This document shows positions 1 to 23,412 of a stretch of 64,000 bases of DNA, piece after piece; position 1 is the first letter of the stretch, and every line of letters starts with the position of its first letter. Where the stretch lies: the NCBI GenBank assembly GCA_015059305.1, contig SVAQ01000002.1:1-64000 (forward strand), given 5' to 3'. Position numbers and translations under genes: made by a program. The notes under the pieces are model-generated. The model was not told the DNA's origin. It saw only the letters and a program-made list of their open reading frames with translations, and did not search any database. The DNA comes from Bacillota bacterium. Lineage in GTDB: Bacteria; Bacillota_I; Bacilli_A; RF39; UBA660.

Positions 1-1072
1 TTTCTTTTATACTAATAAAATACATATTAATATTACGATTTTTTATTTTTAATATTTCTTTAATTTTATTTATTTGTTTATTATCTATTTTATCAGAAAA
101 AGGAATAATTATATCTAAAGTTCCAAAAAAACGATTATTATAAGGCTTAATTTTAAACCAGTCATTTCCATTCATTCGGCCTAAAAATTTAAAATACTTT
201 CCTGTTTTTAATAATAAAGGAAAATAATTTAATACAATTTCATTATGATTTAAATCATGATATTTTTTATAATCAAATAAAAATAATTCTTGTAAAGTTT
301 TAGTAAAATTATATGGATATACTTCAGGATGCCAGGGAAAATTATCAAAATCATCTCTTCCATTGATACAATATTGACAATCTTCAAGCGGTTCTGAAAT
401 TAATTTCATTAAATCTTCTTCACTTTTTAAATCATTTATATTTATATATGATTTTGGATTTTCTTCAAGATTTAAGTATTCCATCATATAAGGAAGAGTG
501 CAACAAGAATAAATTTTATTTTTATATAAAATAAATTGATATGGTTTCTCATTAAAATGTCTGCAATTTTTAAAAGCCTATAAATAATCTTGTTTAATAA
601 ATTTACTATATAAAAATCTATTAAAAAATAATCTTAATCCTGAAACTCTTAATGGAATATTTAATTTTTTAAAACGTTCATCCTATTCTTCATGTTTTTC
701 AAGGAAAATTGGATAAAGAGATTTTTGAAAATAAATATTATTATTATATAATTTAATTAAATTGTCATCTGATATTTTATCTAATAATAAACCATTTGTC
801 CAAACTTGAGTATGTGCTGCTGTATTATTATATTTAATTAATATATCCATTAAATCCATAAAATCTGGATGTATTAAAGTTTCTCCACCGGTAATATCAA
901 TTGTTCTTAAATTTGGTAATTTTTCTTTTAAAATTTTTATATTATTTTCAAATTCTTCTTTAGAAATAGACCACCCTTCGTTTTTTGTAGAACATAAAAC
1001 AGAACAGCCAGTACAATTTAAATTACATTTTGTATTAATAATTACTAAAAATGAATATTTACTATTATTCAT
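1..1072 (-). CDS. Radical SAM/SPASM-like enzyme, 3' end outside window
   Basis: The N-terminus has the radical SAM motif CNLNCTGC (CX3CX2C) near residues 16-23, then GGETLIHP, the SAM-binding GGE motif. Two in-frame TAG codons (683-685, 578-580) must be read as sense. Beyond them the frame stays open to the window edge with downstream cysteines (CRHF, SCC, CQYC) like an auxiliary SPASM/twitch cluster. It is a tandem paralogue of the next gene, and its start overlaps that gene's TAA. Such enzymes cleave SAM at a [4Fe-4S] cluster and often modify ribosomal peptides. The substrate here is unknown; the Tyr-repeat protein at 6278-6943 is a candidate by neighbourhood. Confidence 0.85.
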
Positions 1073-2345
1073 TTATTTTTCTCCTTTTTATAATTTTATA
1101 ATCATTATTTTGATTATTATCTAAAGGTAAATAATAAATATATTTACTAAAAGTATATTTATTTACTATTTCTTCTAAAGTAATATTTTCTGTTTTTAAA
1201 AAGAAAATATTATTTTGATTCATATTACCAGGTCTAAATAAATTATAAATTTGATTTTCTATATTTATATTATTTTCTTTTATACTAATAAAATACATAT
1301 TAATATTACGATTTTTTATTTTTAATATTTCTTTAATTTTATTTATTTGTTTATTATCTATTTTATCAGAAAAAGGAATAATTATATCTAAAGTTCCAAA
1401 TATTTTTTTATAATAATTTCTAATTGCATAAAAATCATTTCCACGATGTCTTCCCATATACTAAATATATTTATTAGCATTTGTTAAAATTTCAGAAATT
1501 GATTTAATTGAATTAATATCATTAAGTAAATTAAAATATTCATCATAATTATATAGATATAAATCTTTTAATGATTTAAAATTATAATTTTTATTTTTAA
1601 AATTTCCAGCAGACCATGGAAAAACATCATTTCCCATATTTTTATCTCTACAATATTTACATATATTATGGCCTTCTGAAACTAATTTCATTAAATCTTC
1701 TTCACTTTTTAAGTCACTGATATTTATATAACATTTTGGATCATCTGGTAAATTTAAGTTTTCAATCATATGGGGTTCGGTTGGGCAACAATAAATTTTA
1801 TTTTTATATAAAATAAATTGATATGGTTCATGAAAATATTCACATGTTTTAAATTGTTCTTCTATATCCATATGGCCATTTAAATTATATCTAGGTTTAT
1901 TAAAGAAAATTCGCATACCATTGCTATGTATATTTAATTTTAATTTTTTAAATCGTTTTTTCTAATTTTCCTAATACTATAAAATTCCAGGATAAATAGC
2001 AATCTAAAAATAAATATTATTATTATATAATTTAATTAAATCTTCATCTGATATTTTATCTAATAATAAACCATTCGTCCAAACTAAATGTGAAGTTTTT
2101 TCTTTAAAAGAAATTAATATATCCATTAAATCCATAAAATCTGGATGTATTAAAGTTTCTCCGCCTGTAATATCAATTGCATCTAAATTTGGTAATTTTT
2201 CTTTTAAAATTTTTAAATTATTTTCAAATTCCTTTTTAGGAATAAACCACTTATTTTCTTCATTTATATTACTACACATCCAGGCACATCCGCTACAATT
2301 TAAATTACAATTATTAGTTATAGCAATTAAAAATGAATATTTCAT
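1065..2345 (-). CDS. Radical SAM/SPASM-like enzyme (five in-frame TAG)
   Basis: This is a 426-residue frame once five TAG codons (2004, 1977, 1971, 1962 and 1461, lower coordinates) are read as Gln; it ends at TAA 1065-1067. It has CNLNCSGC at residues 13-20 and GGETLIHP near residue 60. Later cysteines (CEYF, YCCP, CKYC) fit a C-terminal Fe-S domain. It shares long stretches with the preceding paralogue, including 127 identical base pairs (1274-1400 versus 1-127). The frame starts ATGAAATATTC and couples by TAATG to the upstream gene. Confidence 0.85.
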
Positions 2346-3163
2346 TAATTATAAATCCTTTCTGTATAATTTATTTCTGGATAATAAGAATAATCACTAG
2401 AATATAATATATAATCTCTTAAAATATCTCTAGTTGGCCACCCTCTATCTTGTATTTTAAATATTTCTATATATGGAGAAAATAAATCTAAATCCATTGG
2501 TCTAATTCTTGTAGCATATTTCCATTTTAATAAATTTCCACCTAATCTTCCTGGACAATAACTATTTTCTGTTTTATATTCTCTTTCCCAATGATGTTTT
2601 CCATCGCAATGAGCATGACAATAAGCATTTACTAATAAGATATATTTATATTTTTTTGTTAATTGTTTTATTTCATTTAAATTTCTACAAAAAGGAAAAT
2701 GTAAAACTATATAATCAAAATAATTTTCATAATTATGATTATTATTTATTTCTTTTAATGTTAATCGCATTGAAATAGAACCAACTACAATAAAATTAGA
2801 ATCAATATTTTTAATAATTTTTGCTTGTTCTAAATTTCCTACGCAAAAATTAGAAAAACCTAAATTTATATAGTATTGTAATTTTTCTTTTGACATTATT
2901 TGCTCTTGTTTTTGTAATAATAATTGTAATTTATTTGGAAACATACTATTAATGAGATGAATATGTTTTTCATATTCATCTCTTGTTAATATATTTATAA
3001 GTAAATTTGATTCATGCCCTCTTAAAATTGTTTCATAATCTTCATAAAATGGAGGTATATAAATACAAGCAATTGTTAATCCTTCTGGATCAAAAATTTT
3101 TAAACTTTCTATTAATTTTATATCAAAATTGTAAGGAATTTCAAATAACCGTTTTTTTGTCAT
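2345..3163 (-). CDS. U32-peptidase-like TIM-barrel protein
   Basis: 272 residues, no in-frame TAG. The central and C-terminal part (KYILLVNAYCHAHCDGKHHW followed by a later Cys, YCPGR) resembles U32 'peptidase' family proteins, which bind a [4Fe-4S] cluster through conserved cysteines and act in tRNA or ubiquinone hydroxylation rather than proteolysis. The N-terminal region has alternating beta/alpha character. It is coupled to both neighbours (TAATG, ATGA), so it belongs to the radical SAM operon. Family assignment rests on the cysteine block only. Confidence 0.5.
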   Translation of the reverse strand: MTKKRLFEIPYNFDIKLIESLKIFDPEGLTIACIYIPPFYEDYETILRGHESNLLINILTRDEYEKHIHLINSMFPNKLQLLLQKQEQIMSKEKLQYYINLGFSNFCVGNLEQAKIIKNIDSNFIVVGSISMRLTLKEINNNHNYENYFDYIVLHFPFCRNLNEIKQLTKKYKYILLVNAYCHAHCDGKHHWEREYKTENSYCPGRLGGNLLKWKYATRIRPMDLDLFSPYIEIFKIQDRGWPTRDILRDYILYSSDYSYYPEINYTERIYN

Positions 3164-3570
3164 ATATTATATGCCCCTTTAACTTTTTCACGAAATACTT
3201 TTATATATTCTTCAGGTAAATGAATTTCTGAGTGAACACTACATATTCTTTTTTCTTGATCCAAATCAATAATTGGAGAAGAAATTCTTTGTAAATATTT
3301 ATTTTTAAAAATAAAATTATCAGAAATTTGTTTTTTTATTTTATTTAATTTTTCTTCTATTTCTTGATTATCTGAAAAATTTTGTTCAATATATATTAAC
3401 TATTCATAATTAATTGCATCATAATTAAAAGAATTATCATACATAAAATTTTCATTTGTTAATATTTTTAAATATTCTAATGCTTCTTCAGCATTATTAA
3501 ATAGAGGAAAAGTATTTTTTGTATTTGATATTAAAAAATTTATCATTGTATAATTTGGATACTCTCTCAT
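3160..3570 (-). CDS. Hypothetical protein, radical SAM locus
   Basis: 136 residues beginning MREYPNYTMINFLISN, with one in-frame TAG at 3400-3402. Its TGA stop overlaps the start of the downstream U32-like gene (ATGA), and its start overlaps the TGA of the upstream SPASM gene, so it is translationally coupled on both sides. It is acidic/lysine-rich and helical with no recognisable motif. A small partner or recognition protein for the enzymes is possible but unproven. Confidence 0.65.
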
Positions 3571-4820
3571 ACTAAACCCCCTGTTTGTGAACTATTTATT
3601 AAATTATTACATAAAATAGAAAAATATTGTTTATAAGATTCTTCTGTTATTTCATTTTTTATTTTTTCGGATAAATTTAATTTTAATATTTTATATATTA
3701 AAAAAGAATATTTAGCTCTTTTTAATTGACAGGTTTCTCTAATTGGAATTAATGGATTTAAAACTTTATAATAAGCATCTCCATGACAAAAACCTGGACA
3801 TAAAGGCATATAAAAACAATATTCACATTGAGGTGTCATATTATGTTTTGAATGAGCGCATACAATTAAAGCTGAAATATTATTTGGAATACATTTAGTA
3901 ATAATATTATTTTCAACTTCAAAAAATCCTATAGTTAAATCATCATATTGAATTTTTTTACACATTGTTAAAGATAAATCATTTAAAATAATATGTAAAT
4001 TTTTATGCAAATTACAATTTTGTTTACAAGTTCCTGTATTATTTATTATTCCTTTATCTTTCAAAGAAATAATAGAATTTTCATTTAATAAAAAATTTAT
4101 AAAATTGTCTTGTTTTAATTGAATAAAATAATCAATATAAAAATTTATAAAATCTATATAAATATCAATATTTTCTTCATTCCATAATTCACTTTCTTGT
4201 TCAATTATTTGAATTTGAGAATAAGGAATTGTTTGAATTAAAAACTTAAAGAAATTCTTTTGATCTATTATATTTTCTGGAGTAATTCTATTATAAATAT
4301 TTAAATTATATTCTTTACAAAATGATAAAAAATTATGTATATTACATTGAGTAGATTTAGATATTTCAAGATTAAAATTAATTTTTATATCTAAATTATA
4401 TAATTTAAATTCTTTAATTTTTTCTTCTAAAAAAATCAAATCTTGGTCTTTTAATTTTTCTATTTCAAAAGTAAAATTAATAATTTTATTTACTTTACTA
4501 TCTGAAAAATTTTCAGATAGTAAAGTAAAAACTTTTTCTTTTAAAATATCATTAAAAAACCAATTATCATCTTCTATATATAAATCGCAAATAAAATTAT
4601 TATTATTATACCAATTTAAAAATAATATAAAATTATTAATAATTTTATTTATATCATTATTTATTTCTTGTTCTTTAATAAATATACTATTATTATAATC
4701 ATTATTATTATAAAAAGAAATTGATATATTTTTTGTATTTCCTTTTTTATAATAATAATAATAATTACGATTTAATATATCATTAATTAATAAAATATCT
4801 TGTTCTTTTACTGATATCAT
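3567..4820 (-). CDS. SPASM-domain protein lacking the radical SAM CX3CX2C motif
   Basis: 417 residues without TAG. The N-terminal two thirds are Asn/Ile-rich with no CX3CX2C. The last 170 residues carry a cysteine pattern typical of SPASM auxiliary-cluster domains: GTCKQNCNLH, MCKK, a single Cys near CAHS, then CEYCFYMPLCPGFCHGD and a final Cys. It therefore looks like a degenerate radical SAM protein keeping only the auxiliary Fe-S domain, perhaps a scaffold or peptide-binding partner of the complete enzymes next to it. It lies 5 bp from the upstream radical SAM stop. Confidence 0.7.
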   Translation of the reverse strand: MISVKEQDILLINDILNRNYYYYYKKGNTKNISISFYNNNDYNNSIFIKEQEINNDINKIINNFILFLNWYNNNNFICDLYIEDDNWFFNDILKEKVFTLLSENFSDSKVNKIINFTFEIEKLKDQDLIFLEEKIKEFKLYNLDIKINFNLEISKSTQCNIHNFLSFCKEYNLNIYNRITPENIIDQKNFFKFLIQTIPYSQIQIIEQESELWNEENIDIYIDFINFYIDYFIQLKQDNFINFLLNENSIISLKDKGIINNTGTCKQNCNLHKNLHIILNDLSLTMCKKIQYDDLTIGFFEVENNIITKCIPNNISALIVCAHSKHNMTPQCEYCFYMPLCPGFCHGDAYYKVLNPLIPIRETCQLKRAKYSFLIYKILKLNLSEKIKNEITEESYKQYFSILCNNLINSSQTGGLV

Positions 4821-4825
4821 AAAAT

Positions 4826-6262
4826 TTATTCTTCCAATCTTTGAATTTTATCACTAATACTTTCTTTAATAGTCCATTTTAAATCTTCTAAATGATAATT
4901 ATAAGCAGTTTGAGAATAACCATTTAACCATCTTCTAATAATATCCTATCCAGATAAATAAGGAAAACTTGTAACCTAACAAGACGTTTTAAAACATTCA
5001 TTAATCATTCCAGAAGAAATAAAATGAACATATAATAACTCCGGACTTTTTACATATACTTCATCTAATTGATGAGATAATGCTAATTCTTGACACATTG
5101 CATATCCTAAAGAAATATACGGAAAATAAGTGTCTTTAAAACCTCCCATAATATCATACCATTTATGATCAGCAGTCTCTTTTTCAGTTGCTGTTAAAGG
5201 ATTATAAAACTAATGACTAGCAATTAACATTTTTTTATATTTTTTATAGTCTTTTTCTTCTAAAAATTCATTTTGAAATTTTTCAGTATGTTCAATCCAT
5301 CCATCTGGACACTAACAAATTGTTCCATCTGGAATAATTGTAACAGCTCTCTAAGAAGCTTCAGGACATTCATGATTTGATTTACATAAAGGCCAATCTA
5401 ATTCATGGTTATAAAATAATCTCATAATCTAATCATTTGTTCTACGAAAAGCATTTTCTGTATATAAAGTTTGTTCAATTACTTTAATTAATTTTACAAT
5501 TTCCATTCCTTCTGTAGAAGATGTTTCTTGTGGAGTTGCAATTGTTGGAAAATTTATCATAGAATTAACAAATATAGAAGGATTCTTTGCATTCTTAGTA
5601 GTTTCAATTAATTGACGAATTTCTTTATCCCAAAAGTTAATATGTTTTTTTATATTATCTAAATTAGAAAAATGTTTAAGAAAATTTTTTTGAGTTCCTG
5701 TACTACTTACACAAAAATGTACTGAAATATTTGGTAAATACATTTCTTCTAATTGTTCATATAATTCATAACAATTACGATGATACTATTTCCAACTTGC
5801 AGTATGACCATCTTGAATAAATATATCTCCTTCAGTACCATCGATAGACATTTGAACATGGAAATGCAAAAGATTATTTTCTTTTCTTGGAGTTATATTA
5901 TCATTAATTACTTGTAATAATTGACATAAATCAGATATATTTGTATGAACCCAGTTAGTAGGAACAACAATGCCTTGTATATCTGGACAAAATTTAATAA
6001 GTTCTATCATTCCATCAATTATTTTATCAATATGAATAAAAGGTTCTCCACCCCAAAAAGAAAGATCTGTAACTTCTTTTGGATCGCAATTTAATTTTTC
6101 AAAAACTTTTTTTATGTTCTATACATATGTTCCATCTTTCCAAGACTCAATAATCCATTTATCATATTGTCTAAAACTTCTATTTTTATGTAAAAAACAA
6201 TAAGAACATTTTAAATCGCAAAAAGATGAAGTTATAATATTTAAATGTTCAATTGAATACAT
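4826..6262 (-). CDS. Radical SAM/SPASM-like enzyme (at least eight in-frame TAG)
   Basis: A 478-residue frame open from ATG 6260-6262 to TAA 4826-4828 only if TAG is sense, with TAGs including 5786-5788 and 5429-5431. It has CDLKCSYC at residues 15-22 and WGGEPFIH near residue 73. A C-terminal cysteine region (CKSNHECPEA, then GTICQCPDGW) is consistent with SPASM. One TAG sits between the two Cys of CQC, so termination there would destroy the auxiliary cluster. It lies directly downstream of the Tyr-repeat gene (15 bp gap). Confidence 0.85.
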
Positions 6263-6277
6263 ATATTATTTTTCTCC

Positions 6278-6943
6278 TTATGTTTTTTCATAAGCAAATG
6301 AATATCTATTACTATATTTATCACTATAAGCGCCATATCTAGAACCATAATTTCCACTGTATTGTGAACTATATCTAGAACCATAATTTCCATTATATTG
6401 TGAACTATATTGTCCATTATATTGTGAACTATATTGTCCATTATATTGTGAAGTATATTGTGCGCTATATTCGTTCCAATAGAAACCAAAATAAGCATCA
6501 GAATAAGCAACAGTATATTTACCACTATAAACTGGACATATACCTTCAAGAGTTTTTAACTAAGAATCTAATGTATTAAAATCTGTTGCTTTTATTAAAG
6601 CTCCTGCACTAGGTATAGTAAAATTCGCCTATGAAGATAAACTTTGTGTAGGTACATAAGTATCACTGGTACTATATCCATATGTTGCCCAAGTCTAATA
6701 CCAAGTAGAACGTTTTAAAGTATTTAAATTAGTTTGTAATTGTTGTATATTTGCTTGTGTAATTTTATTTCCTGCTGAAGCAACAGTTGTTGAAAAAGGA
6801 GAAGAAATGCTAGATTTATTTATCTAAGTGCCAGCATTATAATGAGTCTATCTTAAATTTTCAAGTCTAGCAAATAGTGTATTGAATCCTAGAGGAGAGC
6901 CTGATGAAGGGGTATTTGCAAAAATTTTATCTCCCTAATTCAT
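6278..6943 (-). CDS. Tyrosine-periodic repeat protein, putative radical SAM substrate
   Basis: 221 residues with six in-frame TAG, all in the N-terminal part. Residues 1-135 form a Ser/Thr/Gln-rich region (starts MNQGDKIFANTPSSGSPLGF). From residue 139 a Tyr recurs exactly every four positions to 203, then 206, 210, 214 and 218, with repeats such as YSSQYNGQYSSQYNGQ and YGSRYSSQYSGN: 21 Tyr in 80 residues. Gln in the repeat is always CAA. A strong RBS (GGAGG, 5 bp) precedes ATG. Flanked by radical SAM/SPASM genes, it is a plausible leader-plus-core modified protein. A surface or tail-fibre protein with an aromatic repeat is the main alternative. Confidence 0.75.
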
Positions 6944-6960
6944 TTTTACCTCCTTTTATA

Positions 6961-7323
6961 TTATTCTTTTAATTTAATAGTAAATTCAAAAGTTTCAATA
7001 TTATCTTTCTGTTCATATAAATCTCTACAATATACTTCTGAAAGTTCTTCTCTTTCATAAGTATATTGATTACTATTTAAAATAATATTAATTTTTTCAA
7101 TAGTAATATTATTAACTAAAATTAATTTTATAATTTCTTCAGTGAAAGTTAAAAAATCATTTTTTTCTTCACCAGTATCAAGACATCTGAAAGTCCATTC
7201 GCGTCCAAGCTCAGTATCACCTGGATTAATAAGAGTTACATTTTTTCTAATGAAAAAATTTTTATTATCAAAATTATATACTTTTGTTTCTCCATTAGAT
7301 AAAATTAATTCAATTTGTTTCAT
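6961..7323 (-). CDS. Hypothetical protein
   Basis: 120 residues (MKQIELILSNGETKVYNFDN...), no TAG, ends TAA. It is mixed beta-strand-like, with no motif recognised. It lies 17 bp upstream of the Tyr-repeat gene in the same operon and overlaps the end of the 94-residue gene, so it is probably co-expressed. A small virion or accessory protein is as likely as a peptide-recognition partner. Confidence 0.65.
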   Translation of the reverse strand: MKQIELILSNGETKVYNFDNKNFFIRKNVTLINPGDTELGREWTFRCLDTGEEKNDFLTFTEEIIKLILVNNITIEKINIILNSNQYTYEREELSEVYCRDLYEQKDNIETFEFTIKLKE

Positions 7324-7594
7324 TTATATTTTTTTCCTTTCCTAATAAAAAAATTATTTTATTATTATTTTTTTCTAAAAAGACTCCTTGAATATAATAT
7401 AAAGATAATGGTAATTCATCACTTAATATTTTTATATTCTAATATCTATATTTTGAAAAAATATCAAATAAATTATCTATATTTTCATCTTCATTAAAAG
7501 ATATAAAAATATAAGCTTTAAAATTAGGTGTTAACGAAATTTCATACGATATATCTTTAACATTATTATATTCAATATTATTAATATTAATCAT
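7310..7594 (-). CDS. Hypothetical protein with one in-frame TAG
   Basis: 94 residues starting MININNIEYNNVKDISYEIS, ending TGA 7310-7312 and overlapping the next gene by 14 bp. One TAG (in KYRYQNIKIL) must be sense. A good RBS (GGGGGATTAATAAAA) precedes ATG. No domain recognised. Confidence 0.6.
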
Positions 7595-7639
7595 TTTTAT
7601 TAATCCCCCTTTATAAAAGGGAAAAATATTAAAAATAGA

Positions 7640-8614
7640 TTAATCATTTTTGCTTAGTTTAGAAAAGCTTAAACAACCGCCTTGACATTTTTTATTTTTA
7701 AATTCTATACAATCATTACACTTTCCAAAATTATTATTATTTGTTTTATCTACAATAACTCCTTTTAAAAAGAAATTTCTTAATTCTTCACAATTATTAA
7801 ATTTATTACAATCAATTAAACTATCATAAGAACCAAAACAAGGACTTGCTTTAAAATCTGCTGTAATGTCAACACAAGGAATACAAAAATCATTTATTAT
7901 ATCTTTATTAGTAACTTTTTTAATTAATGATAATTCTAAATCTGTAAAATAACAATCAGGAATATGATTACAATCTATTCCAACTTTAACTTTTCTATAA
8001 TAAGCATTTAAAATAAAATTTAAAAAAACAGGTTTTAATTTAGTATAATATAATTCTTTATTTTGTTTATATTCAAAATTCATGGGTGCTGTAACAGATA
8101 CTCTAACCCTTTTTATTTTAAATTTATCTATTATATCCCAAAAAAAAGAATAATCTTCAATTTCTAAACATAAATTACAACCGCATGTAAATTGAGAATT
8201 TTCTTCACTAAGTTTATTTTTTAAATAAAGAATATTTAATACTTTATTTAAAGCTAAAAAATAATCTTCGGACATATTTTTAGGAGAATTTATATTAATT
8301 AAAACACTCATTTGAGGACTAATATATTGTAAAAAGGGTTGTAAATTAATACCATTTGTGAATAAAATAGAATCTGTATTATTCTTTGAACAATGATTAT
8401 TTACAATTGATAAAATTTCTTTAAATTGCGGATGTAGTGTAGGTTCACCACCAATTAATCCTACTCTTTCTCTAGGTGTTTTTTCTAGCCAAGATAAAAT
8501 ATTTTTTAATATATTTAAATCAATATTTTTTTTATCTTTTTCAGTCATCATATCCTCTGCAAAGCAATAAGGACATTTTAAATTACAATATTTTGTAATT
8601 GCAATATTAGCCAT
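7640..8614 (-). CDS. Radical SAM/SPASM enzyme
   Basis: 324 residues, no TAG. It is a compact complete enzyme: CNLKCPYC at residues 10-17, IGGEPTLHP near residue 54, then a cysteine-rich C-terminus (CGCNLC; FCIPCVD; SPCFG; GKCNDC and KKCQGGC), the classical SPASM ligand pattern. Members usually install thioether, C-C or Cbeta links on ribosomal peptides. It starts at MANIAITKYC behind an AGGAG RBS, 17 bp after the FkbM gene. Confidence 0.88.
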   Translation of the reverse strand: MANIAITKYCNLKCPYCFAEDMMTEKDKKNIDLNILKNILSWLEKTPRERVGLIGGEPTLHPQFKEILSIVNNHCSKNNTDSILFTNGINLQPFLQYISPQMSVLININSPKNMSEDYFLALNKVLNILYLKNKLSEENSQFTCGCNLCLEIEDYSFFWDIIDKFKIKRVRVSVTAPMNFEYKQNKELYYTKLKPVFLNFILNAYYRKVKVGIDCNHIPDCYFTDLELSLIKKVTNKDIINDFCIPCVDITADFKASPCFGSYDSLIDCNKFNNCEELRNFFLKGVIVDKTNNNNFGKCNDCIEFKNKKCQGGCLSFSKLSKND

Positions 8615-8631
8615 ATAAAATAATTCTCCTT

Positions 8632-9396
8632 TTATTTACCAAATAAATATAATCCCTAACCATTCTTTTCTAAGAAAAAATATAAATTATATAAAAAATT
8701 ATAATTTTTTATTAAAAAAGTAATATTATTATTATTATTTTCATGATATAAACCCATACTTAAAATAGGTTTATATTTTTGCAATAATTTTTCAGCACCT
8801 ATAATTAATTCTTCTTCAGAACCTTCTACATCAATTTTTAAAAAAGTTGGAATAATATTTGTATTTTGAATAAAATAATCTAAAGAAATACAATTTACTT
8901 GTTCAGAAAATATTATTTTATTTTCAAAATTAACTAATAATTGCTAATCATGACTAGCTCCAAGATTATCGCACTAAACAAATATTTTTGTACATTTTTC
9001 ATTTTTTAATGCAAAAGGCTAAATATGAATATTATTAGGATATAATTTAGCAGTTTCTTCAAGTAAACTTCTTGTAAAAGACATTGGTTCAAATGCATAT
9101 ACTTGAGCTCCCTATGCAGCTGCATATGCTGAAAATAAACCCATATTAGCTCCACAATCAAAAATTATATCTTTATTAGAAATTTTATATAAATTATTTT
9201 CATAAAAAATAGTATCATTTATAAAATAATTAGAATATATTTTATACAATAAATGACAAAATTCCCACTAAATTATTTTATTATTACTATATTTTTTATA
9301 AAAATTAGGAATTTTTACATTTTTAATTATAATAATATCATCATTTTCAATATTTATATTATAAGCTTTAAAAAAAGAAATTACTTGATTAATCAT
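8632..9396 (-). CDS. FkbM-family methyltransferase (six in-frame TAG)
   Basis: 254 residues, recovered only by reading six TAG codons as Gln. Conserved FkbM blocks follow in order: DCGANMGLFSAYAA (SAM site, about residues 80-93), VYAFEP, FLKIDVEGSEEELI, and KPILSMGLYH. The family methylates O-groups, mostly on sugars and natural products. In this operon it may methylate the modified protein or a cell-surface sugar. One TAG sits in AAQGAQVYAFEP, inside the SAM-binding fold, so truncation would kill the enzyme. Confidence 0.88.
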
Positions 9397-9417
9397 TTTT
9401 TAACCCCATTATTATAA

Positions 9418-10272
9418 TTATGATAAATTACAATTAGGACAAACAAAATATAAATTTTCTAAATTAATATTATCTTTATTATTATCTCTATATTTTACTA
9501 AAAGAGTAATAGGTTTATTATTCCAAGTTGAAATACCACATTTTGAACATTTATATTTATTTTCTGGTACAACAATAATATTATCATAAATTTTTATTTC
9601 TTCATTATTATTTTTTAATGTTTCAATAGATTCAGTTTTATAAATATGTTCTTTCATAGCATTAATTAAATTTAATGTTTTATGTTCTTCTTTATCTTCT
9701 TCTATAATTACTTCATTATTTTCTAATTCAGATAAAAATGAGGCAATAAAATCAATATCTTGATTCTTCTCTTGCCCTTCATTTAAATAATCTTGTTTAC
9801 ATTCTTTAACTATTTCAATCATTTTATCATTATGACTATCATGAACATTATTAGATTTTGGAAAAGTTTTAGAATCAATTTCTAAAGTATTAAAATATTC
9901 TAAAATTTTATTTAATTGACTAATAATTATTGGATGTCTTAAAAAATAATTTTCTTGTTTATTTAAAACAGAATTAATATCATTTAATAATTTTAATAAA
10001 TCTTTGATATTAGTCATATCAAAATTATCATAATTTATTTTTGTTTCATCAAATGGTGCGTCTAAATTAAAATTATTAAAATTTAATATTGCATCAATTG
10101 TTATTTTTAAATTTTCTTGTAAAGATAAATAAATTTCATCACTTTTTTCATTTTCTACAAAAATTTCATTTACAAATAATAATAATAAATAATGACAATA
10201 AATATTATCGTTATCATAAAAAAATCTAAAATCATCTAATCTAGCAAATAAATCAATACTATAATTATCCAT
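9418..10272 (-). CDS. Protein with degenerate C-terminal HNH/zinc-ribbon
   Basis: 284 residues, no TAG. A helical, acidic N-terminal 230 residues is followed by YKCSKCGIS and FVCPNCNLS, i.e. two CX2C pairs framing KYRDNNKDNINLENLYF. This is the layout of an HNH endonuclease finger, but the first catalytic His (LxxDH) is replaced by K-Y-R-D and the final NCH is NCN. It is probably a DNA- or RNA-binding zinc ribbon rather than a nuclease. It is the first gene after the promoter at 10307-10335 and may head the radical SAM operon. Confidence 0.65.
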   Translation of the reverse strand: MDNYSIDLFARLDDFRFFYDNDNIYCHYLLLLFVNEIFVENEKSDEIYLSLQENLKITIDAILNFNNFNLDAPFDETKINYDNFDMTNIKDLLKLLNDINSVLNKQENYFLRHPIIISQLNKILEYFNTLEIDSKTFPKSNNVHDSHNDKMIEIVKECKQDYLNEGQEKNQDIDFIASFLSELENNEVIIEEDKEEHKTLNLINAMKEHIYKTESIETLKNNNEEIKIYDNIIVVPENKYKCSKCGISTWNNKPITLLVKYRDNNKDNINLENLYFVCPNCNLS

Positions 10273-10306
10273 TTATAAACTCCTTTTTCTCGTATTTTAT
10301 ATAAAT

Positions 10307-10335
10307 ATTATATCAAAAAAAAATGGGAAAGTCAA
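10307..10335 (-). promoter_or_regulatory. Promoter upstream of the HNH-like gene and radical SAM locus
   Basis: TTGACT (10330-10335), 17 bp spacer, TATAAT (10307-10312) on the minus strand. It is the only clear promoter seen for the block 10272 to 1. Confidence 0.7.
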
Positions 10336-10360
10336 AAACATTTTCCCTAAAAATATTATC

Positions 10361-10651
10361 TTAAATTCCAAGCATATTCATTAATTCATTAATTTTAGAT
10401 TGCTCATTTTCACTAATTTCAACTGATGGCTGTTGTGACATTGCTGTATCAACAGTTTGAATCATTTCAAAATTCATTCCACCAATAGGATTCTTAGGAC
10501 AAGTCATAGAAATAGCAACCTGAACCTTTTCTCCACCTTCATATGCTTGAATATAAATTTTCTTATCCTGTTCGCCAAGATAATCTTCACCAAAAGCTTC
10601 TGCTATTTTTTTAGCAACTAATTCTTTCGCAATTGCACCTTTTATAGCCAT
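10361..10651 (-). CDS. Hypothetical protein
   Basis: 96 residues (MAIKGAIAKELVAKKIAEAF...), with an Ala/Lys-rich helix at the start and a polar tail. No TAG, ends TAA. AAAGGAGAAAAA RBS. It sits 10 bp after the nuclease gene and just before the TTGACT promoter. No domain recognised. Confidence 0.65.
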   Translation of the reverse strand: MAIKGAIAKELVAKKIAEAFGEDYLGEQDKKIYIQAYEGGEKVQVAISMTCPKNPIGGMNFEMIQTVDTAMSQQPSVEISENEQSKINELMNMLGI

Positions 10652-10661
10652 TTTTTCTCCT

Positions 10662-11384
10662 TTAAACTATATATTTATCATCATTTAACAACATATCAAT
10701 AGTTATATCATTTAGATGCCAATAAGGTATTCTAACTAAAGGAATATTGTATTGTTTAGCAATTTCATTTTTTTCTTTATCTCTCTTTTGAGTTTCTTCT
10801 AAAGTAGAATTTGCAGACCAGTGATTAGCCTTAGGTCTATAATAATGCTAAATTCCATCAAATTCAATTAGTCTAATAACTTTATTATTTTCATCTAAAA
10901 TAGCAAAATCAAATCTTCTATTTTTATAATCTAAAAATTTATACTCACTAATAAAACTTATAGAATTTTCTTTTAATAATTCCATAATTTTAAATTCACC
11001 TTTTGATTTTTGGCAACCACAAGAAATAGTTCCATTATTTAATGAAGTAGAACTAATAGATTTAATTTCATTACATTTATGGCATAAACAAATCCAATGA
11101 GAAGGAATTTGTTTTCCATAAAAATTCATATCTCTTTCTAAAACTTCTAAAAATCCAAAATATTTTCCAGTTAAATCTTTTAATGAACTTTTTGAAGTTT
11201 GTTCTTTCTAAAAACATCCACAAGAAATAGTATGACCTCTTCGTAAATCTGCCGTATCAACGACTATTTCTTTACCACATTCACACTAACATTTCCATCT
11301 TGTTCTATTATTTTTATTAGGAGCTTTTTCTAATGCTATTAATCTTCCAAATTTTTGATTTGTTAAATCAAGTCTTTTACCCAT
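10662..11384 (-). CDS. Homing-type endonuclease, PD-(D/E)xK fold (three in-frame TAG)
   Basis: 240 residues. Two repeats of the phage zinc-like module GRL-x-W/RWKC-x-CxCG-x-SCGC (about residues 12-62 and 74-124) are followed by a nuclease domain: RRFDFAILDEN, IRLIEFDGIQHY, a Lys/Arg/Asp-rich helix and IPLVRIPY. The Q of the conserved QHY is encoded by TAG, direct support for TAG = Gln. Selfish endonucleases with this architecture are common in phages. It ends TAA 10662-10664. Confidence 0.8.
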
Positions 11385-11442
11385 AAAATTTTTCACCTCT
11401 TTCTAATTATATATGAAAAATTCTGGCAAAAGATTTTTTAAA

Positions 11443-11459
11443 AATGGCCTTCGCCATTA
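11443..11459 (-). terminator. Terminator spanning the stop codon of 11457-12809
   Basis: On the minus strand ATGGC-gaag-GCCAT is followed by TTTTT; the hairpin begins inside the TAA stop codon. Confidence 0.6.
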
Positions 11460-12809
11460 GTATTCCTCCATATGTTTACAATTATAACATTCATAATATC
11501 CGCCATCTCTATTGTAATAAATATCATCCTCATAGAAATATTGACCACAACATTCACATCTATGCAAATTTTCTAAACATTCATCACAAACAAGTTCATC
11601 ATCGTTTATCCAATGTGTCCTATCTACATGTGTTCTACGTCCGCAAGAAGCACAATAAGCAAAGTTTTCATTTTCTTCACTACCATATTCTTCTTCACAA
11701 GAATTACACATCATAGTTCCAGTAGAAGTAATATCATTACTTTCACATCGTAAGCATTTCGGCACTCCACCAACTGTAATAGTAGTAGCTAAAGAACTGA
11801 TTCCATAATATCTACTTCCAGACCAATAATTATTTCTACGATATAAAAATAAAGGTTCATAACAAGATGATTTCAATAAATCATTATAATGTAAATCACT
11901 TTTATCTATAATTACATCTCTTTTTGGTTTTATACCTCCACCAACAATAATATGCGGATACTCTAACCAAATTTTTTCTTCATTTGCTCCAACAAACTTA
12001 TTTACTGTTGGAGTCCAAGAAGAATATCCTGATAATGGGAAAATTACTTCTTTTAATTTTTCTCTAACAACTTCAAGTCCAATAGTAGAAGTAAATGGAT
12101 ACTGCCGACCAGCTGCAATCATGCTCCAATCATCAGATGCATATAATAATACTCGCCACTTTTTGGAATTCCATTTAACATCTTCCGGAAAGTTAGAAAT
12201 TTGCTGATCATATGGAGATTTTAAATAACAAATAAAAGTAGACCTATCCAGCATATAGGATAGATTCCCCCCACAATAATCTCCATCAAGAGCATGACAA
12301 GAGCGCCAGTTATGAGCATTCTCACTTAAACTTAAAAAATCCAAAGGATGAACTGAAAAACATAATTTTCCACTAACTTTATCTTCCTGAATAATTTGAC
12401 TTGCTTTACTTTGAAGCAAATCCAGCACATATTTATCCTTTTCAAAGAATTTAAAAGCCTTTACTAACTTTGTTCCCTTTTGGATTTTTGTTCCATCGGC
12501 GCAAATATAATCTTCTGGTGTCATATTATTATAAAAACCATCTGACATAGATTCTATAAATTTGACCAATTCGGGATTAGGATACTGCCAAGTAATCATA
12601 TCCTCAAAAGCACCAATTCTTTTTCTTTTCTCAGATTCATCTAACTCAAAGGTAATAGTTTCTGGAAATTCATAAATCATTTCCCCATTAAAGAAATGAA
12701 GAAAATCTGCTTTTGCTTCTTTCCAACGTAAAATTAAATCATCTACTTTTGGTTCTGGAATATCCTGAGAATAAGTAATAACTTTCTGAAAATCTTCTTT
12801 AAATGACAT
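11457..12809 (-). CDS. Zinc-ribbon protein, paralogue of 15327-17048
   Basis: 450 residues. The central core (LCFSVHPLDFLSLSENAHNW, RSCHALDGDYCGGN, then a FICYLK strand) is shared with the gene at 15327-17048. The C-terminal 100 residues hold four CX2C pairs (CLRC, CNSC, CASC, CDEC) and a final CECC/CYNC, i.e. tandem zinc ribbons. The function is unknown; an RNA- or protein-binding scaffold is possible. It abuts the upstream peptidase gene (TAAATG), which also ends in zinc ribbons. Confidence 0.75.
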   Translation of the reverse strand: MSFKEDFQKVITYSQDIPEPKVDDLILRWKEAKADFLHFFNGEMIYEFPETITFELDESEKRKRIGAFEDMITWQYPNPELVKFIESMSDGFYNNMTPEDYICADGTKIQKGTKLVKAFKFFEKDKYVLDLLQSKASQIIQEDKVSGKLCFSVHPLDFLSLSENAHNWRSCHALDGDYCGGNLSYMLDRSTFICYLKSPYDQQISNFPEDVKWNSKKWRVLLYASDDWSMIAAGRQYPFTSTIGLEVVREKLKEVIFPLSGYSSWTPTVNKFVGANEEKIWLEYPHIIVGGGIKPKRDVIIDKSDLHYNDLLKSSCYEPLFLYRRNNYWSGSRYYGISSLATTITVGGVPKCLRCESNDITSTGTMMCNSCEEEYGSEENENFAYCASCGRRTHVDRTHWINDDELVCDECLENLHRCECCGQYFYEDDIYYNRDGGYYECYNCKHMEEY

Positions 12810-13778
12810 TTAGTCCCTCATCTTTCTACAGTCATAACATTCTAAGCTATTATTTACATCGCCTTCTACTTCGTATGCTTCAAAGCAGGTACTGCACCAA
12901 GCAATATTTGAAGAAGCAATACAATCTGGACAATAAAATTTAGTACCACCAGAGCGAGATTTAACAGGAACTAATTCAAATTCAAAAAATTCCCGTCCGC
13001 AATGATCGCACTTCATAATTTCATCAGATAAATAATCATTCCACATATAACTAAATCTACTCTTATATGTAGGAATATATTCAAACTGCTCAACATTATC
13101 AACATCTTCGAGCATGTTTATTACTCTTTTAATTGTTTGTAATACAACGTTGATGTTTAATGTTTCAATATAGGTATGTTCATTCTTATATCCAATAGAA
13201 AGATTAACTCCGGCAATTCCCCAATAAGGACAAAGTACACTAATATCAGAGAATGTTCCCCATTCTTCAAGAAATCCAAAAGATTCAACATATTCTACGA
13301 ATGGAATATTATTACAATTATAGAATACGCAATCATTTTTTCCCTGCCGATCAAGTTCAATGATATATTTAATATCTTCGAAAGGGCCCATAGGATAATC
13401 TGCGGCTAATGCTTGTGCGCCCTTGCCACCGATTTCTTCACCAGTAGTAAAAATAATATGCGGTTTATATCCAGCTCTAATAATTTTTAAAATTGCATAT
13501 ACACCGGCTCTATCATCAGCTCCTAATCCTTCTGGACTCCACATAATACCAGCTTTTTCATCGTAATAGATATTATCTGGCGGTGAAGTAAAAACAGTAT
13601 CTAAATGCGCGACAAGAGCAATAGGAATATTACCTTCCGCGCATAGATACTTATCTGACTTAATTACTTTATCATATCTTTTTTCTAAAAAAGTGCCTAA
13701 TGTTTTTAATAAGACTTTTTCTTCCATTGAGGCAATTTGTTTAAAAAGCTGCGTATCATTATAACTCAATACCTTCAT
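12810..13778 (-). CDS. M20/M28-like metallopeptidase fused to zinc ribbons
   Basis: 322 residues from the chosen ATG (13776-13778, 8 bp after GGGGAG; an in-frame ATG 18 bp further upstream exists). Metal-site motifs occur in order: AHLDTV, GADDRAGVYA, FTTGEEIGG, IELDRQG and a late NEHTY His, as in aminopeptidase/deacylase M20-M28 enzymes. After residue 250 there are two CX2C pairs (CDHC, CPDC) and two more (CSTC, CYDC). The zinc-ribbon tail matches those of the neighbouring gene and is unusual for this peptidase family. Confidence 0.8.
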   Translation of the reverse strand: MKVLSYNDTQLFKQIASMEEKVLLKTLGTFLEKRYDKVIKSDKYLCAEGNIPIALVAHLDTVFTSPPDNIYYDEKAGIMWSPEGLGADDRAGVYAILKIIRAGYKPHIIFTTGEEIGGKGAQALAADYPMGPFEDIKYIIELDRQGKNDCVFYNCNNIPFVEYVESFGFLEEWGTFSDISVLCPYWGIAGVNLSIGYKNEHTYIETLNINVVLQTIKRVINMLEDVDNVEQFEYIPTYKSRFSYMWNDYLSDEIMKCDHCGREFFEFELVPVKSRSGGTKFYCPDCIASSNIAWCSTCFEAYEVEGDVNNSLECYDCRKMRD

Positions 13779-13817
13779 TCGCATCTCTCCCCACATTTTA
13801 TTTTTATCTTATAATAT

Positions 13818-13846
13818 ATTATAACACTTTTTTAATAAAAAATCAA
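13818..13846 (-). promoter_or_regulatory. Promoter for 13778-11457
   Basis: Minus strand TTGATT, 17 bp, TATAAT within the palindrome TTATAATATATTATAA. Confidence 0.7.
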
Positions 13847-14638
13847 TTAAGCTTTCTTGAAGCCTAGACCTGGAACCCATTCTGCCTTGGCTCTATCAAG
13901 TGCTTGACTTAGTTGAATTGCGTTAAAGCATAGCTTACAAGAGCCACCACGCTGACAATTCTGGCGACATTGAGTGCGGGCTTCACCAAATTGTTCTGGA
14001 ATAGCACGATTATCAACATTTTCACCAAAATTAGTAAGAATAAGATTTAAATTACCAGGCCATTTTTTATCTTCTTGATAAACTTTAATTAAAACTGCTT
14101 CTTTTTTAATATCATTAGTTTCAAATTCTAATGTTTCAACATATTTTTCATATGCAGGCACATCTTCCGGACGAACATATGTTCCGCAAACACCATTAGG
14201 TCTTGGAATATATCCATCAAAACATAAATTCGCAACTAATCGAATTGGAAGTCCTTGTTTCTTCACTTCAGCAAGATCAAAATATAGCGGTGCCCCAAGT
14301 AAAAGTTCGCAAACTCCAAGATATACACAGCCACGAAGTTCGTAGAATGAAGTGATTGGATATGCCCAATAGAATTTTAATTTATAAGTATGGCAAGCTT
14401 TGGCCATGCGCAGATTCGCTAATGCGAGCGTCAGATCGACCTTGGCCGCGAACATTTCTAATTCTTTCCAATCAATGCCTTCATCTTCTTTTGGAATAAT
14501 CATAATATATTTCTTATTCTTTAAATCTTCATCTTCAATGAAATTATATAAACCTTTTCTATCTTTATAATCAAATTTGATTTCATCAGCTTTTTTGAGA
14601 ACATCCTTTGGCTGTCTCGCAGATACACAATATTTCAT
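13847..14638 (-). CDS. Hypothetical cysteine-containing alpha/beta protein
   Basis: 263 residues. The middle (WAYPITSFYELRGCVYLGV, then PLYFDLAEV) looks like TIM-barrel strands and helices. The C-terminal CRQNCQRGGSCKLCF packs four Cys in about 16 residues, suggesting a metal or Fe-S site. It is reminiscent of U32-like proteins but not assignable. It stands alone between promoters. Confidence 0.65.
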   Translation of the reverse strand: MKYCVSARQPKDVLKKADEIKFDYKDRKGLYNFIEDEDLKNKKYIMIIPKEDEGIDWKELEMFAAKVDLTLALANLRMAKACHTYKLKFYWAYPITSFYELRGCVYLGVCELLLGAPLYFDLAEVKKQGLPIRLVANLCFDGYIPRPNGVCGTYVRPEDVPAYEKYVETLEFETNDIKKEAVLIKVYQEDKKWPGNLNLILTNFGENVDNRAIPEQFGEARTQCRQNCQRGGSCKLCFNAIQLSQALDRAKAEWVPGLGFKKA

Positions 14639-22030: not shown

Positions 22031-23412
22031 TACTTCTTTTCCTTATTCATATTCATCATCATCATAAATGGCAGCATATCATTCATCTTATTGTCGCCCA
22101 TCAGTGCGAACATCATCATTGGATTAGACATATCCATTTCACCACCATTCATCAGCATCATCATAGGCAGCATATCAGTCATCTTACTGCCATTATTCAG
22201 CATTAAGAAAGGCAGCATGTTGCCGAATGGCTGATCCTTAGAAGTATTAAAACTCATATCGCCCATGATATTAACCAGCTTTGTGTAGAAATCAAAACCG
22301 AATGGACTCTTGGTAGGAATAATTGTCTTCTGTTCCTTATTAAAGATATCTTCCACGATAGGATATGCAGTATTTTCATCAAAGTCGATTACTCTTACCC
22401 AAGTGCCATTGTGCTTAATAAAATCATTTACTGTAACCTTATCCTTTGGCACAGGCATCTGGTAGAATGGAATATCCATATCAAACATCAGAGCAGTTAC
22501 ATCTACCCAGTCGCCAGTCTTCTTTTCCAGAGCAATCCATTCAGAAGTGCCACTATTATCCATAGACTGGAATGCTGGACCATACATAGACATCTTAACG
22601 CCACTTGCCTTACCGAAATTAAAATCCTTCATAATACTCTTCATATTCATATTTCTCTTTTCCTCTCTTAATTTTAAATTATCTACTGCTTCTTTTAATT
22701 CTTTAATTGAATCTGCTGCTGTTTCCGCAGATATTGCTACATTTGACCAGAAACCATCATTTTGAATCTTTAATACAGAAGGATCTATATCAGAAGAAAT
22801 TTTTAATGAATCTGGATCTACTGTAATCTTTGTTGAAATTGTTTCTGGTAACTTATAATCTACTTCAGTAGCTGTCGTTCCATAAAAATTGATAGGATTT
22901 TCTACTGCTGAACTAGCAGTTGCATATGCCTCATCAACATACCAAGTTGAACTTTCATTTGCGCAATTACATGTTAATGGTGCTCCTTTTCCAAACCATG
23001 CTGGTGTCATACTTCTATTATCCTCCACTATATCATCGAAGGAGTAAAAATCAAGAAAATCACTAACTTCCATTACTGCAACAGTTTCTAATGGAGTATC
23101 ATCTTCATCGAAATTAATCTTATGCTTATTTCGAAGTTCTGCTTTCTTAATCTTTGGTCTATCCGGATAAGCACTATCAGAAATTTCTTCTGCATTAGTA
23201 AATATTACAAAATTGTGATATCTACTCTTGCTTTCACAGGTCATTTCCCATGTAGGGAAATTATAAACCCACTTACCATCATTTCTGTTCCGTGCCGCAA
23301 AATATTCTGTATCATTAATATCACTAAAAATCTTATCTGATACTCGATAAATGTAGCTCTTTTCGGATAACTTACCACTCGGATTCAGAAATCTCGCTGT
23401 CAGTGCATACAA
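22030..23412 (-). CDS. Large protein with methionine-rich C-terminus
   Basis: 460 residues. The middle is a charged helix (ADSIKELKEAVDNLKLREEK) and a beta-rich region. Residues after about 365 are extremely Met-rich (DMLPMMMLMNGGEMDMSNPM then MMMFALMG), with repeats of the type D/N-M-L-P-F/M-M-M. Such tails could be amphipathic, metal-binding or signal-recognition-like. The start at 23410-23412 overlaps the upstream gene by 41 bp. Confidence 0.7.
   Translation of the reverse strand: MYALTARFLNPSGKLSEKSYIYRVSDKIFSDINDTEYFAARNRNDGKWVYNFPTWEMTCESKSRYHNFVIFTNAEEISDSAYPDRPKIKKAELRNKHKINFDEDDTPLETVAVMEVSDFLDFYSFDDIVEDNRSMTPAWFGKGAPLTCNCANESSTWYVDEAYATASSAVENPINFYGTTATEVDYKLPETISTKITVDPDSLKISSDIDPSVLKIQNDGFWSNVAISAETAADSIKELKEAVDNLKLREEKRNMNMKSIMKDFNFGKASGVKMSMYGPAFQSMDNSGTSEWIALEKKTGDWVDVTALMFDMDIPFYQMPVPKDKVTVNDFIKHNGTWVRVIDFDENTAYPIVEDIFNKEQKTIIPTKSPFGFDFYTKLVNIMGDMSFNTSKDQPFGNMLPFLMLNNGSKMTDMLPMMMLMNGGEMDMSNPMMMFALMGDNKMNDMLPFMMMMNMNKEKK

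What the first reader, a model, noticed from the sequence alone, without database searches (positions are those of the whole stretch)
4826..9396. Phage radical SAM locus with a tyrosine-every-four-residues protein, a candidate viral RiPP-like system
The product of 6278-6943 has 21 tyrosines in its last 83 residues, 17 of them in strict register (139 to 203, step 4), behind a Tyr-poor 135-residue N-terminus. It is surrounded on one strand by four radical SAM/SPASM enzymes (to 1), a SPASM-only protein, a U32-like protein and an FkbM methyltransferase. Radical SAM/SPASM enzymes are known to modify aromatic-containing ribosomal peptides. Leader-core architecture plus neighbouring maturases is the usual layout of a RiPP locus, here in a lytic-type phage genome. 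That the protein is the substrate is inference.
Basis: partly seen in the sequence, partly recalled or inferred. Interest (0 to 1): 0.95.

Follow-up and report, generated by a model that had tools for sequence, protein, structure and literature searches.

The report
Phage enzymes beside a tyrosine-ladder protein
A large virus of bacteria, related to human-gut phages, carries radical-chemistry enzymes right beside a protein whose tail has a tyrosine at every fourth position, and a second enzyme set beside a cysteine-repeat protein, suggesting that the virus chemically remodels its own proteins; this has not been shown at the bench.

Summary
On the minus strand, with TAG read as Gln, window 6278-6943 encodes a 221-residue protein: a Tyr-poor N-terminus (5 Tyr in 135), Cys136, then 21 Tyr in 83 residues, 17 of them at period 4. 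A radical SAM (rSAM) gene starts 15 bp downstream; three more rSAM genes, an FkbM methyltransferase and a SPASM-motif protein flank it. 'U32-like' has no support. Five relatives keep the leader-Cys-Tyr plan; more distant ones vary it, and six of those end in a Hint domain. New here: the same phage has a second locus, two rSAM genes beside a Cys-repeat protein, and Phage Phass-1 has a similar arrangement. Nine related phages without large rSAM genes showed neither repeat. The phage also carries YcaO, ThiF and weakly glycogenin-like genes. Against: unrelated phage proteins also have Tyr every fourth residue, mostly with no rSAM on the record; leader homology between Tyr and Cys proteins is not significant; no ABC exporter or PqqD-type domain was found. 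Best reading: a leader-core substrate, probably late, modified by the adjacent rSAM enzyme. Chemistry and role are unknown.

The parts
6278..6943 (-). Tyr-tetrad repeat protein, 221 aa under TAG=Gln (6 TAG); leader aa 1-135 (6539-6943), Cys136, core aa 139-221 (6281-6529)
   Evidence: no Pfam or NCBIfam family; only PHROG hit E 0.012, unknown function
4826..6262 (-). radical SAM enzyme, 478 aa, 8 TAG, starts 15 bp after the repeat gene's stop; most likely maturase
   Evidence: CxxxCxxC at residue 15; 31 homologues of 472-501 residues; AlphaFold pLDDT 87.6, pTM 0.87; Foldseek top 8ai3 EpeE E 1.3e-4, TM-score 0.28 by query
7640..8614 (-). radical SAM/SPASM-like protein, 324 aa
   Evidence: PF04055 43.0 bits; NCBIfam PapB model residues 4-318, E 1.1e-6, far below its curated cut-off; CxxxCxxC at residue 10
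8632..9396 (-). FkbM-family methyltransferase, 254 aa, 6 TAG
   Evidence: PF05050 56 bits, TIGR01444 76.7 bits
6961..7323 (-). 120-aa protein of unknown function, upstream of the repeat gene (17 bp gap)
7310..7594 (-). 94-aa protein of unknown function
3567..4820 (-). 417-aa protein with a SPASM-like Cx2Cx5Cx3C motif and no rSAM motif
   Evidence: TIGR04085 17.7 bits, below cut-off 27; motif at residue 332
3160..3570 (-). 136-aa protein of unknown function
2345..3163 (-).
1065..2345 (-). radical SAM protein, 426 aa, 5 TAG; part of its C-terminal half is duplicated in the next gene
   Evidence: PF04055 36.6 bits; 315 identical bases shared with the next copy
2..1072 (-). radical SAM protein, open at the window edge (still open at the record's end)
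   Evidence: PF04055 45.3 bits

Best explanation
The locus is a phage-encoded, RiPP-like protein-modification system. The 221-residue protein is a substrate with a helical N-terminal leader, a boundary Cys136, and a core of about 20 tetrads Tyr-[Ser/Gly]-[Ser/Gly/Thr]-[Arg/Phe/Gln/His/Lys]. The adjacent radical SAM enzyme (4826-6262) binds the leader and runs along the core, using a 5'-deoxyadenosyl radical to modify Tyr side chains or their neighbours, most likely by crosslinking within tetrads; the second rSAM/SPASM-like protein and the FkbM methyltransferase may add further changes. The genes share the TAG-rich codon usage of the structural genes, so I infer late expression and a product that acts in or on the virion or at lysis rather than as an exported bacteriocin. 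Shown: the sequence, the repeat, its conservation, the adjacency, the enzyme families, the second rSAM-repeat locus, the TAG usage. Inferred: that the protein is the substrate, the chemistry, the timing, the role.
For: Leader-Cys-Tyr plan kept in six proteins (window plus P0003-P0007; 44-54% identical to the window's, by alignment used), with 14 Tyr columns invariant in the 8-row alignment while tetrad positions 2-4 vary. Over 13 chosen relatives 186 of 214 Tyr-Tyr steps are exactly 4 (P0014's count runs into its Hint domain). Gaps of 15 and 17 bp on one strand. P0004 and P0032 share contig length 3,445 and source. Second locus in the same phage: two rSAM genes (the first PapB-like, 150.6 bits; PDB 5wgg E 6.7e-23), the second overlapping the start of a 228-aa protein with 10 Cys in its last 60 residues. 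Phass-1 also has two rSAM genes followed by a Cys-rich-tail protein. 0 of 9 TerL relatives without large rSAM genes showed either repeat. TAG share of Gln codons 0.25 in the locus, 0.30 in the structural block, 0.05 in the replication block (p 2e-8).
Against: No direct evidence of modification. In 15 of 17 virus records with unrelated Tyr-every-four proteins no rSAM was found (9-63 kb, completeness unknown), so the repeat alone does not imply a maturase. Leader similarity between the Tyr and Cys proteins is not significant (hhalign E 0.057 and 0.028, probability under 2%; motif HMM: Phass-1 i-E 0.26, beaten by an unrelated 70-aa ORF; this phage's Cys protein i-E 20). In Phass-1 the homologue of the PapB-like gene is the second rSAM gene, in this phage the first, so the order of the two is not conserved. 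The Cys locus has no TAG, unlike the Tyr locus. No PqqD-type RRE and no ABC exporter matched. The repeat protein's model is poor (mean pLDDT 54.4; core below 50). FkbM and glycosyltransferase neighbours are equally at home in glycan clusters.
Confidence: 0.6

Rival explanations
1. The protein is an ordinary virion or tail-associated repeat protein. Tyr every fourth residue is a structural repeat, as in very large proteins of other phages, and the rSAM, FkbM and glycosyltransferase genes beside it serve something else, such as glycan or cell-surface tailoring.
For: Analogous Tyr- or Trp-every-four proteins up to about 3,000 residues in other virus records, e.g. L135 and L137; 15 of 17 such records with no rSAM found. 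TAG usage like the structural genes. FkbM and weakly GT8-like neighbours. GC of 20-23% at 1-12 kb against 29-37% in the rest of the window, perhaps acquired DNA.
Against: The analogues have different N-termini. Here the rSAM gene is directly adjacent, and a second rSAM-repeat locus exists in this phage and one in Phass-1. No PHROG structural family matched P0001 or P0003.
Confidence: 0.22
2. The tyrosines (or serines) are glycosylated: two glycogenin-like (GT8) glycosyltransferases decorate the repeat, and the rSAM enzymes act on the sugars or elsewhere.
For: Of 20 PDB sequences matching G000:936-1712, 19 are glycogenins, which glycosylate a tyrosine (recalled), best E 0.0006. The record's first and last 117 bases are identical, which would place the two genes just downstream of the last rSAM gene if the genome is circular. 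Their TAG share, 0.29, is like the locus.
Against: Marginal E-values; no Pfam GT8 hit at E up to 5. The other PDB hit, and the only one for the first gene (E 0.02), is a glucoside-Skp1 galactosyltransferase, which by its name adds to a sugar. The overlap lies in a repeated stretch. No GT sits next to the repeat gene itself.
Confidence: 0.12
3. The Tyr ladder is a by-product of 12/24-bp DNA repeat expansion without function.
For: Tandem DNA repeats of period 12, 24, 36 and 48 in the core; P0002 lacks one 8-residue unit.
Against: Tyr register and Cys136 kept in relatives at 44-54% identity whose other core residues differ; the first and last tetrads are not copies of the 24-bp unit.
Confidence: 0.03

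Closest known systems
Radical SAM 'CXXX-repeat' peptide systems (TIGR04115 maturase family)
   Same: rSAM maturase beside a protein with a period-4 repeat of one reactive residue. The phage's second locus (Cys repeat) is the nearest analogue.
   Different: The second locus's first rSAM scores 69.4 bits against a cut-off of 350. The window's repeat is Tyr, not Cys. That these systems use CXXX-repeat substrates comes from the model's name and is otherwise recalled.
Ranthipeptides / PapB and SCIFF / CteB
   Same: The second locus's first rSAM is PapB-like (150.6 bits, cut-off 340); best PDB match 5wgg (named only 'Radical SAM domain protein' there; CteB is recalled) at E 6.7e-23.
   Different: Below the family cut-off; the putative substrates are 174-228 aa. 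The window's own enzymes are much more distant.
Cyclophane-forming rSAM/SPASM systems (YhhB, WgkB, FxsB)
   Same: Aromatic residues in short motifs beside rSAM (recalled); weak profile matches.
   Different: All far below cut-offs; the third residue of the tetrad is Gly in 48 of 186 tetrads, which has no beta carbon for a three-residue cyclophane (motif recalled).
Phage Phass-1 (OQ749652.1), code-15 clade
   Same: TAG-recoded phage, TerL 44.5% identical; two rSAM genes, then a protein with a Cys-rich tail.
   Different: No Tyr-every-four protein found. The two rSAM types are in the other order, and gyrase-type genes follow directly, against 8.7 kb downstream here. The Cys-protein gene is unannotated in the record.
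Very large Tyr/Trp-every-four proteins in other virus records
   Same: Period-4 aromatic ladder in phage proteins.
   Different: Different N-termini, far longer; in 15 of 17 records no rSAM found.

Membership tests
Radical SAM superfamily (4826-6262) | CxxxCxxC cluster motif in an rSAM fold | tested here: met
   Motif at residue 15, cysteines invariant in 32 sequences; Foldseek EpeE, viperin, DesII; but PF04055 under its cut-off
SPASM domain (4826-6262) | Auxiliary-cluster cysteines Cx2Cx5Cx3C | tested here: not met
   No such motif; further invariant Cys299, 318, 423
RiPP system | Leader-core precursor encoded beside a maturase | tested here: met
   layout only
RiPP system | Ribosomal product is post-translationally modified and leader cleaved | not testable with these tools
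   needs mass spectrometry
RiPP system | PqqD-type RRE or ABC exporter (common, not universal) | tested here: not met
   No match in the record (the PqqD control was over its cut-off in only 3 of 14 genomes). Proteases and other RRE types were not searched for
CXXX-repeat rSAM maturase TIGR04115 | Score above curated cut-off 350 | tested here: not met
   69.4 and 36.8 bits for the second locus's rSAM proteins
PapB ranthipeptide maturase NF047865 | Score above curated cut-off 340 | tested here: not met
   150.6 bits for L004:990-2177; 28.1 bits for 7640-8614
Three-residue cyclophane (triceptide) systems | Aromatic-X-X with a beta carbon at the third residue (recalled) | tested here: inconclusive
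   Third position Ser 85, Gly 48, Thr 19 of 186 tetrads
GT8 / glycogenin (outside window, G000:936-1712) | Significant family match | tested here: inconclusive
   PDB best E 0.0006; Pfam none for GT8
Peptidase U32 (2345-3163) | Family match | tested here: not met
   None at E up to 5 in Pfam; PDB best E 0.67

The most novel reading that the evidence does not exclude
A TAG-recoded phage, related to phages of Firmicutes, carries several independent peptide-maturation systems (rSAM with a Tyr-tetrad protein, rSAM with a Cys-repeat protein, and possibly YcaO/ThiF) and uses them to make covalently hardened or crosslinked viral proteins: a viral branch of RiPP-like chemistry that serves the virion or lysis rather than antibiosis.
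Probability: 0.35. Interest if true: 0.92.

Novelty: new variant of a known kind. Interest (0 to 1): 0.8.

Why it matters
If true, phages use radical SAM chemistry on their own repeat proteins, which would be a new source of crosslinking enzymes and of unusual protein materials, and would give a function to unannotated genes in code-15 gut phages. The Tyr ladder offers some 20 near-equivalent sites in one substrate, convenient for reading enzyme processivity. Such loci are easy to miss because in-frame TAG breaks the genes: the Phass-1 Cys-protein gene has no annotation in its record, and the phrase 'radical SAM' does not occur in the main text of the Phass-1 paper.

Tried and rejected
Scans that gave no distant relatives of the Tyr-repeat family: viral contigs (only the near-identical strain IMGVR_UViG_3300029705_000049 or nothing), genome contigs (28 stretches matched, none confirmed; 64 stretches, none a family member on reading the matches), INPHARED phages. 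Adjacent rSAM: none, only the strain, none (that scan missed even the known strain, probably because TAG is not among its Gln codons, so it is weak evidence).

rSAM was found in 2 of 17 and 0 of 23. The choice was not blind, so I do not count this as support. One of the two, G002, has a cluster of rSAM genes at 19.6-27.5 kb, some 43 kb from its giant Tyr/Trp proteins. A tblastn of one giant protein's N-terminus found no named phage.

Leader homology between Tyr and Cys proteins: tested three ways, not significant. One search was flawed (it read gapped alignment rows); one search replaces it. A regular-expression count (5 of 218 ORFs, both repeat proteins among them) was post hoc. The zinc-finger filter wrongly dropped the Phass-1 Cys protein; one search removed it. 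MT835472 (W11) was fetched because it matched the Phass-1 rSAM and set aside as bacterial-looking DNA. Contig-length matching is weak evidence: within the rSAM list two other rows also share a length, 2,154.

Rejected: chance periodicity; three-residue cyclophane at every tetrad (48 of 186 third positions are Gly); exported bacteriocin (no ABC transporter match; host exporters not excluded).


Full report
What is there. The window is part of a 188,323-bp virus record. Its TerL is 61% identical to that of a human-faecal phage contig, 51-52% to those of Enterococcus phages VRE9_4 and H1 and Geobacillus virus E3, and 44.5% to that of Phage Phass-1. ARAGORN lists 20 tRNAs, a tmRNA and a further tRNA with anticodon CTA in the record's first 20 kb; Rfam agrees on the tmRNA and the CTA tRNA. 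TAG is read as Gln: residues opposite TAG in standard-code relatives behave much like those opposite ordinary Gln. No Phage_integrase or Resolvase match.

The repeat protein. Minus strand 6278-6943, 221 residues, six in-frame TAG, all in the N-terminal 128 residues. The last 83 residues hold 21 Tyr, 17 consecutive at period 4; 200,000 shuffles reached at most 10. Homologues: 7 proteins in a direct search, 26 with a profile. Of the 26, P0024, P0026 and P0027 look like chance Tyr repeats and P0018 and P0020 lack the repeat, by eye. Across 13 chosen relatives the tetrad is Tyr-[Ser 119, Gly 45 of 186]-[Ser 85, Gly 48, Thr 19]-[Arg 47, Phe 39, Gln 37, His 15, Lys 13] (in P0014 the cut before the Hint domain failed). 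P0008, P0009, P0010, P0012, P0013 and P0014 carry Hint or intein-like domains after the repeat (P0008 rechecked), which suggests self-cleavage just after the repeat in those versions (inference). P0021, P0022, P0023 and P0025 vary the repeat with His and Arg.

The enzymes. The adjacent 478-residue rSAM belongs to a family with 31 detected homologues of 472-501 residues, keeping CxxxCxxC, GGE and cysteines 299, 318 and 423. The model is confident (pLDDT 87.6, pTM 0.87), with best solved-structure matches to the radical SAM epimerase EpeE (E 1.3e-4), viperin-like enzymes and DesII, at low TM-scores of 0.24-0.35 by query. A profile search of PDB sequences found nothing at E 0.01. The other enzymes are as in the parts list.

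The model of the repeat protein is poor (mean pLDDT 54.4): helices at 20-40 and 63-78 with block pLDDT of 72-79, a third at 119-135 with 54-67, and the core below 50.

A second rSAM-repeat locus. G000:20990-22177 and 22174-23373 are rSAM genes; the first is PapB-like (150.6 bits, cut-off 340) and matches PDB chain 5wgg at E 6.7e-23. The second overlaps the start of a 228-residue protein with 10 Cys in its last 60 residues, partly at period 4. Phass-1 has an rSAM gene (343 aa, 10 TAG; PF04055 37 bits), a second rSAM gene (397 aa) and then a 174-residue protein with 8 Cys in its last 60 residues. The homologue of this phage's first rSAM gene is the second of the pair in Phass-1 (32.5% identity, E 2e-34), so the arrangement is similar but the order of the two enzymes is not the same. 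In Phass-1 two gyrase-type genes (named by eye) follow directly; here a gyrB gene (Pfam) and a gyrA-like gene (by eye) start 8.7 and 12.1 kb downstream. The two Cys proteins are 25% identical in a pairwise alignment.

Co-occurrence. Of 95 phage records with a TerL match I examined 10: Phass-1 and nine others. rSAM genes over 250 residues were found in G000 and Phass-1 and in 0 of the nine by motif scan; Pfam finds rSAM in three of the nine, in open frames of 178-202 residues. Tyr-every-four runs of 6 or more: G000 only. Tails with 8 or more Cys in the last 60 residues: G000 and Phass-1 only. Not covered: 131-5,294 bases at one end of six of the nine records, genes cut by stretch borders, and for the Cys scan G000:140001-169999. 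For 2 of 2 against 0 of 9, Fisher p is 1/55, but the records are not independent.

Timing. TAG makes up 29 of 117 Gln codons in the locus (0.25), 238 of 804 in the structural block (0.30; p 0.33), 14 of 293 in the replication block (0.05; p 2e-8), and 0 of 35 in the Cys locus. Recoding is thought to regulate certain genes (passages of PMC10607447); late expression of this locus is my inference. The Cys locus would then be expressed differently.

Neighbourhood. The record's first and last 117 bases are identical, although IMG/VR calls it linear; the stretch also occurs in the tandem rSAM copy, so circularity is likely but not proven. If circular, two glycosyltransferase-like genes (G000:134-1712) follow the rSAM pair; for the second, 19 of 20 PDB matches are glycogenins, best E 0.0006. 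ThiF (E 6.3e-29) and YcaO (E 9.5e-30) genes lie at 8.9-14.0 kb, with two weakly HipA-like genes. YcaO was found in G000 only, of three records (G001 is a fragment).

What I conclude. The rSAM-substrate reading is the best single account because enzyme and repeat protein are adjacent, the leader-core plan is conserved, and a second rSAM-repeat locus exists. It is not proven; the chemistry is open. A product that stays with the phage fits the TAG-rich usage and the absence of ABC transporters better than a secreted peptide (inference).

Literature seen. PMC10607447: abstract and 12 of 37 passages; its main text has no occurrence of 'radical SAM', 'RiPP' or 'SPASM'. PMC9413430 and PMC9523058: start of abstract in listings only. 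Searches for radical SAM with phage genomes and RiPP, CXXX repeat with radical SAM and phage-encoded RiPPs with YcaO returned no paper; the library lacks most subscription papers. Listings of related searches showed no title on this system; one search listed 10 of 55 papers and one search listed 8 of 23.

Noticed in passing
G000:20990-24028 (L004:990-4028): Second rSAM locus: two rSAM genes and a Cys-repeat protein; a similar arrangement in Phage Phass-1 (L241:6992-9728).
   Followed up: yes
G000:8944-9675 and 12217-14007 (L003): Phage-encoded ThiF-family and YcaO-family proteins with two weakly HipA-like genes; a possible third peptide-modification system. No precursor sought.
   Followed up: partly
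G000:134-1712 (L003): Two tandem glycosyltransferase-like genes; the second matches glycogenins weakly. Adjacent to the rSAM pair if the genome is circular.
   Followed up: partly
G000 ends: First 117 bases equal the last 117 although IMG/VR calls the record linear; the stretch lies inside a duplicated rSAM C-terminus.
   Followed up: partly
L015/G002 (L135, L136) and L112/G015 (L137, L138): Phage proteins of about 3,000 residues with hundreds of Tyr/Trp at period 4; G002 also has a cluster of rSAM genes with carbamoyltransferase- and oxygenase-like genes (names by eye).
   Followed up: partly
window 1-12000: GC 20-23% against 29-37% in the rest of the window.
   Followed up: no
L003:14154-15710: DUF2828/DUF7788 protein downstream of the tRNA array and the YcaO gene.
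   Followed up: no
P0002 versus window 6278-6943: A near-identical protein lacks one 8-residue repeat unit, so repeat number varies in steps that keep the Tyr register.
   Followed up: no
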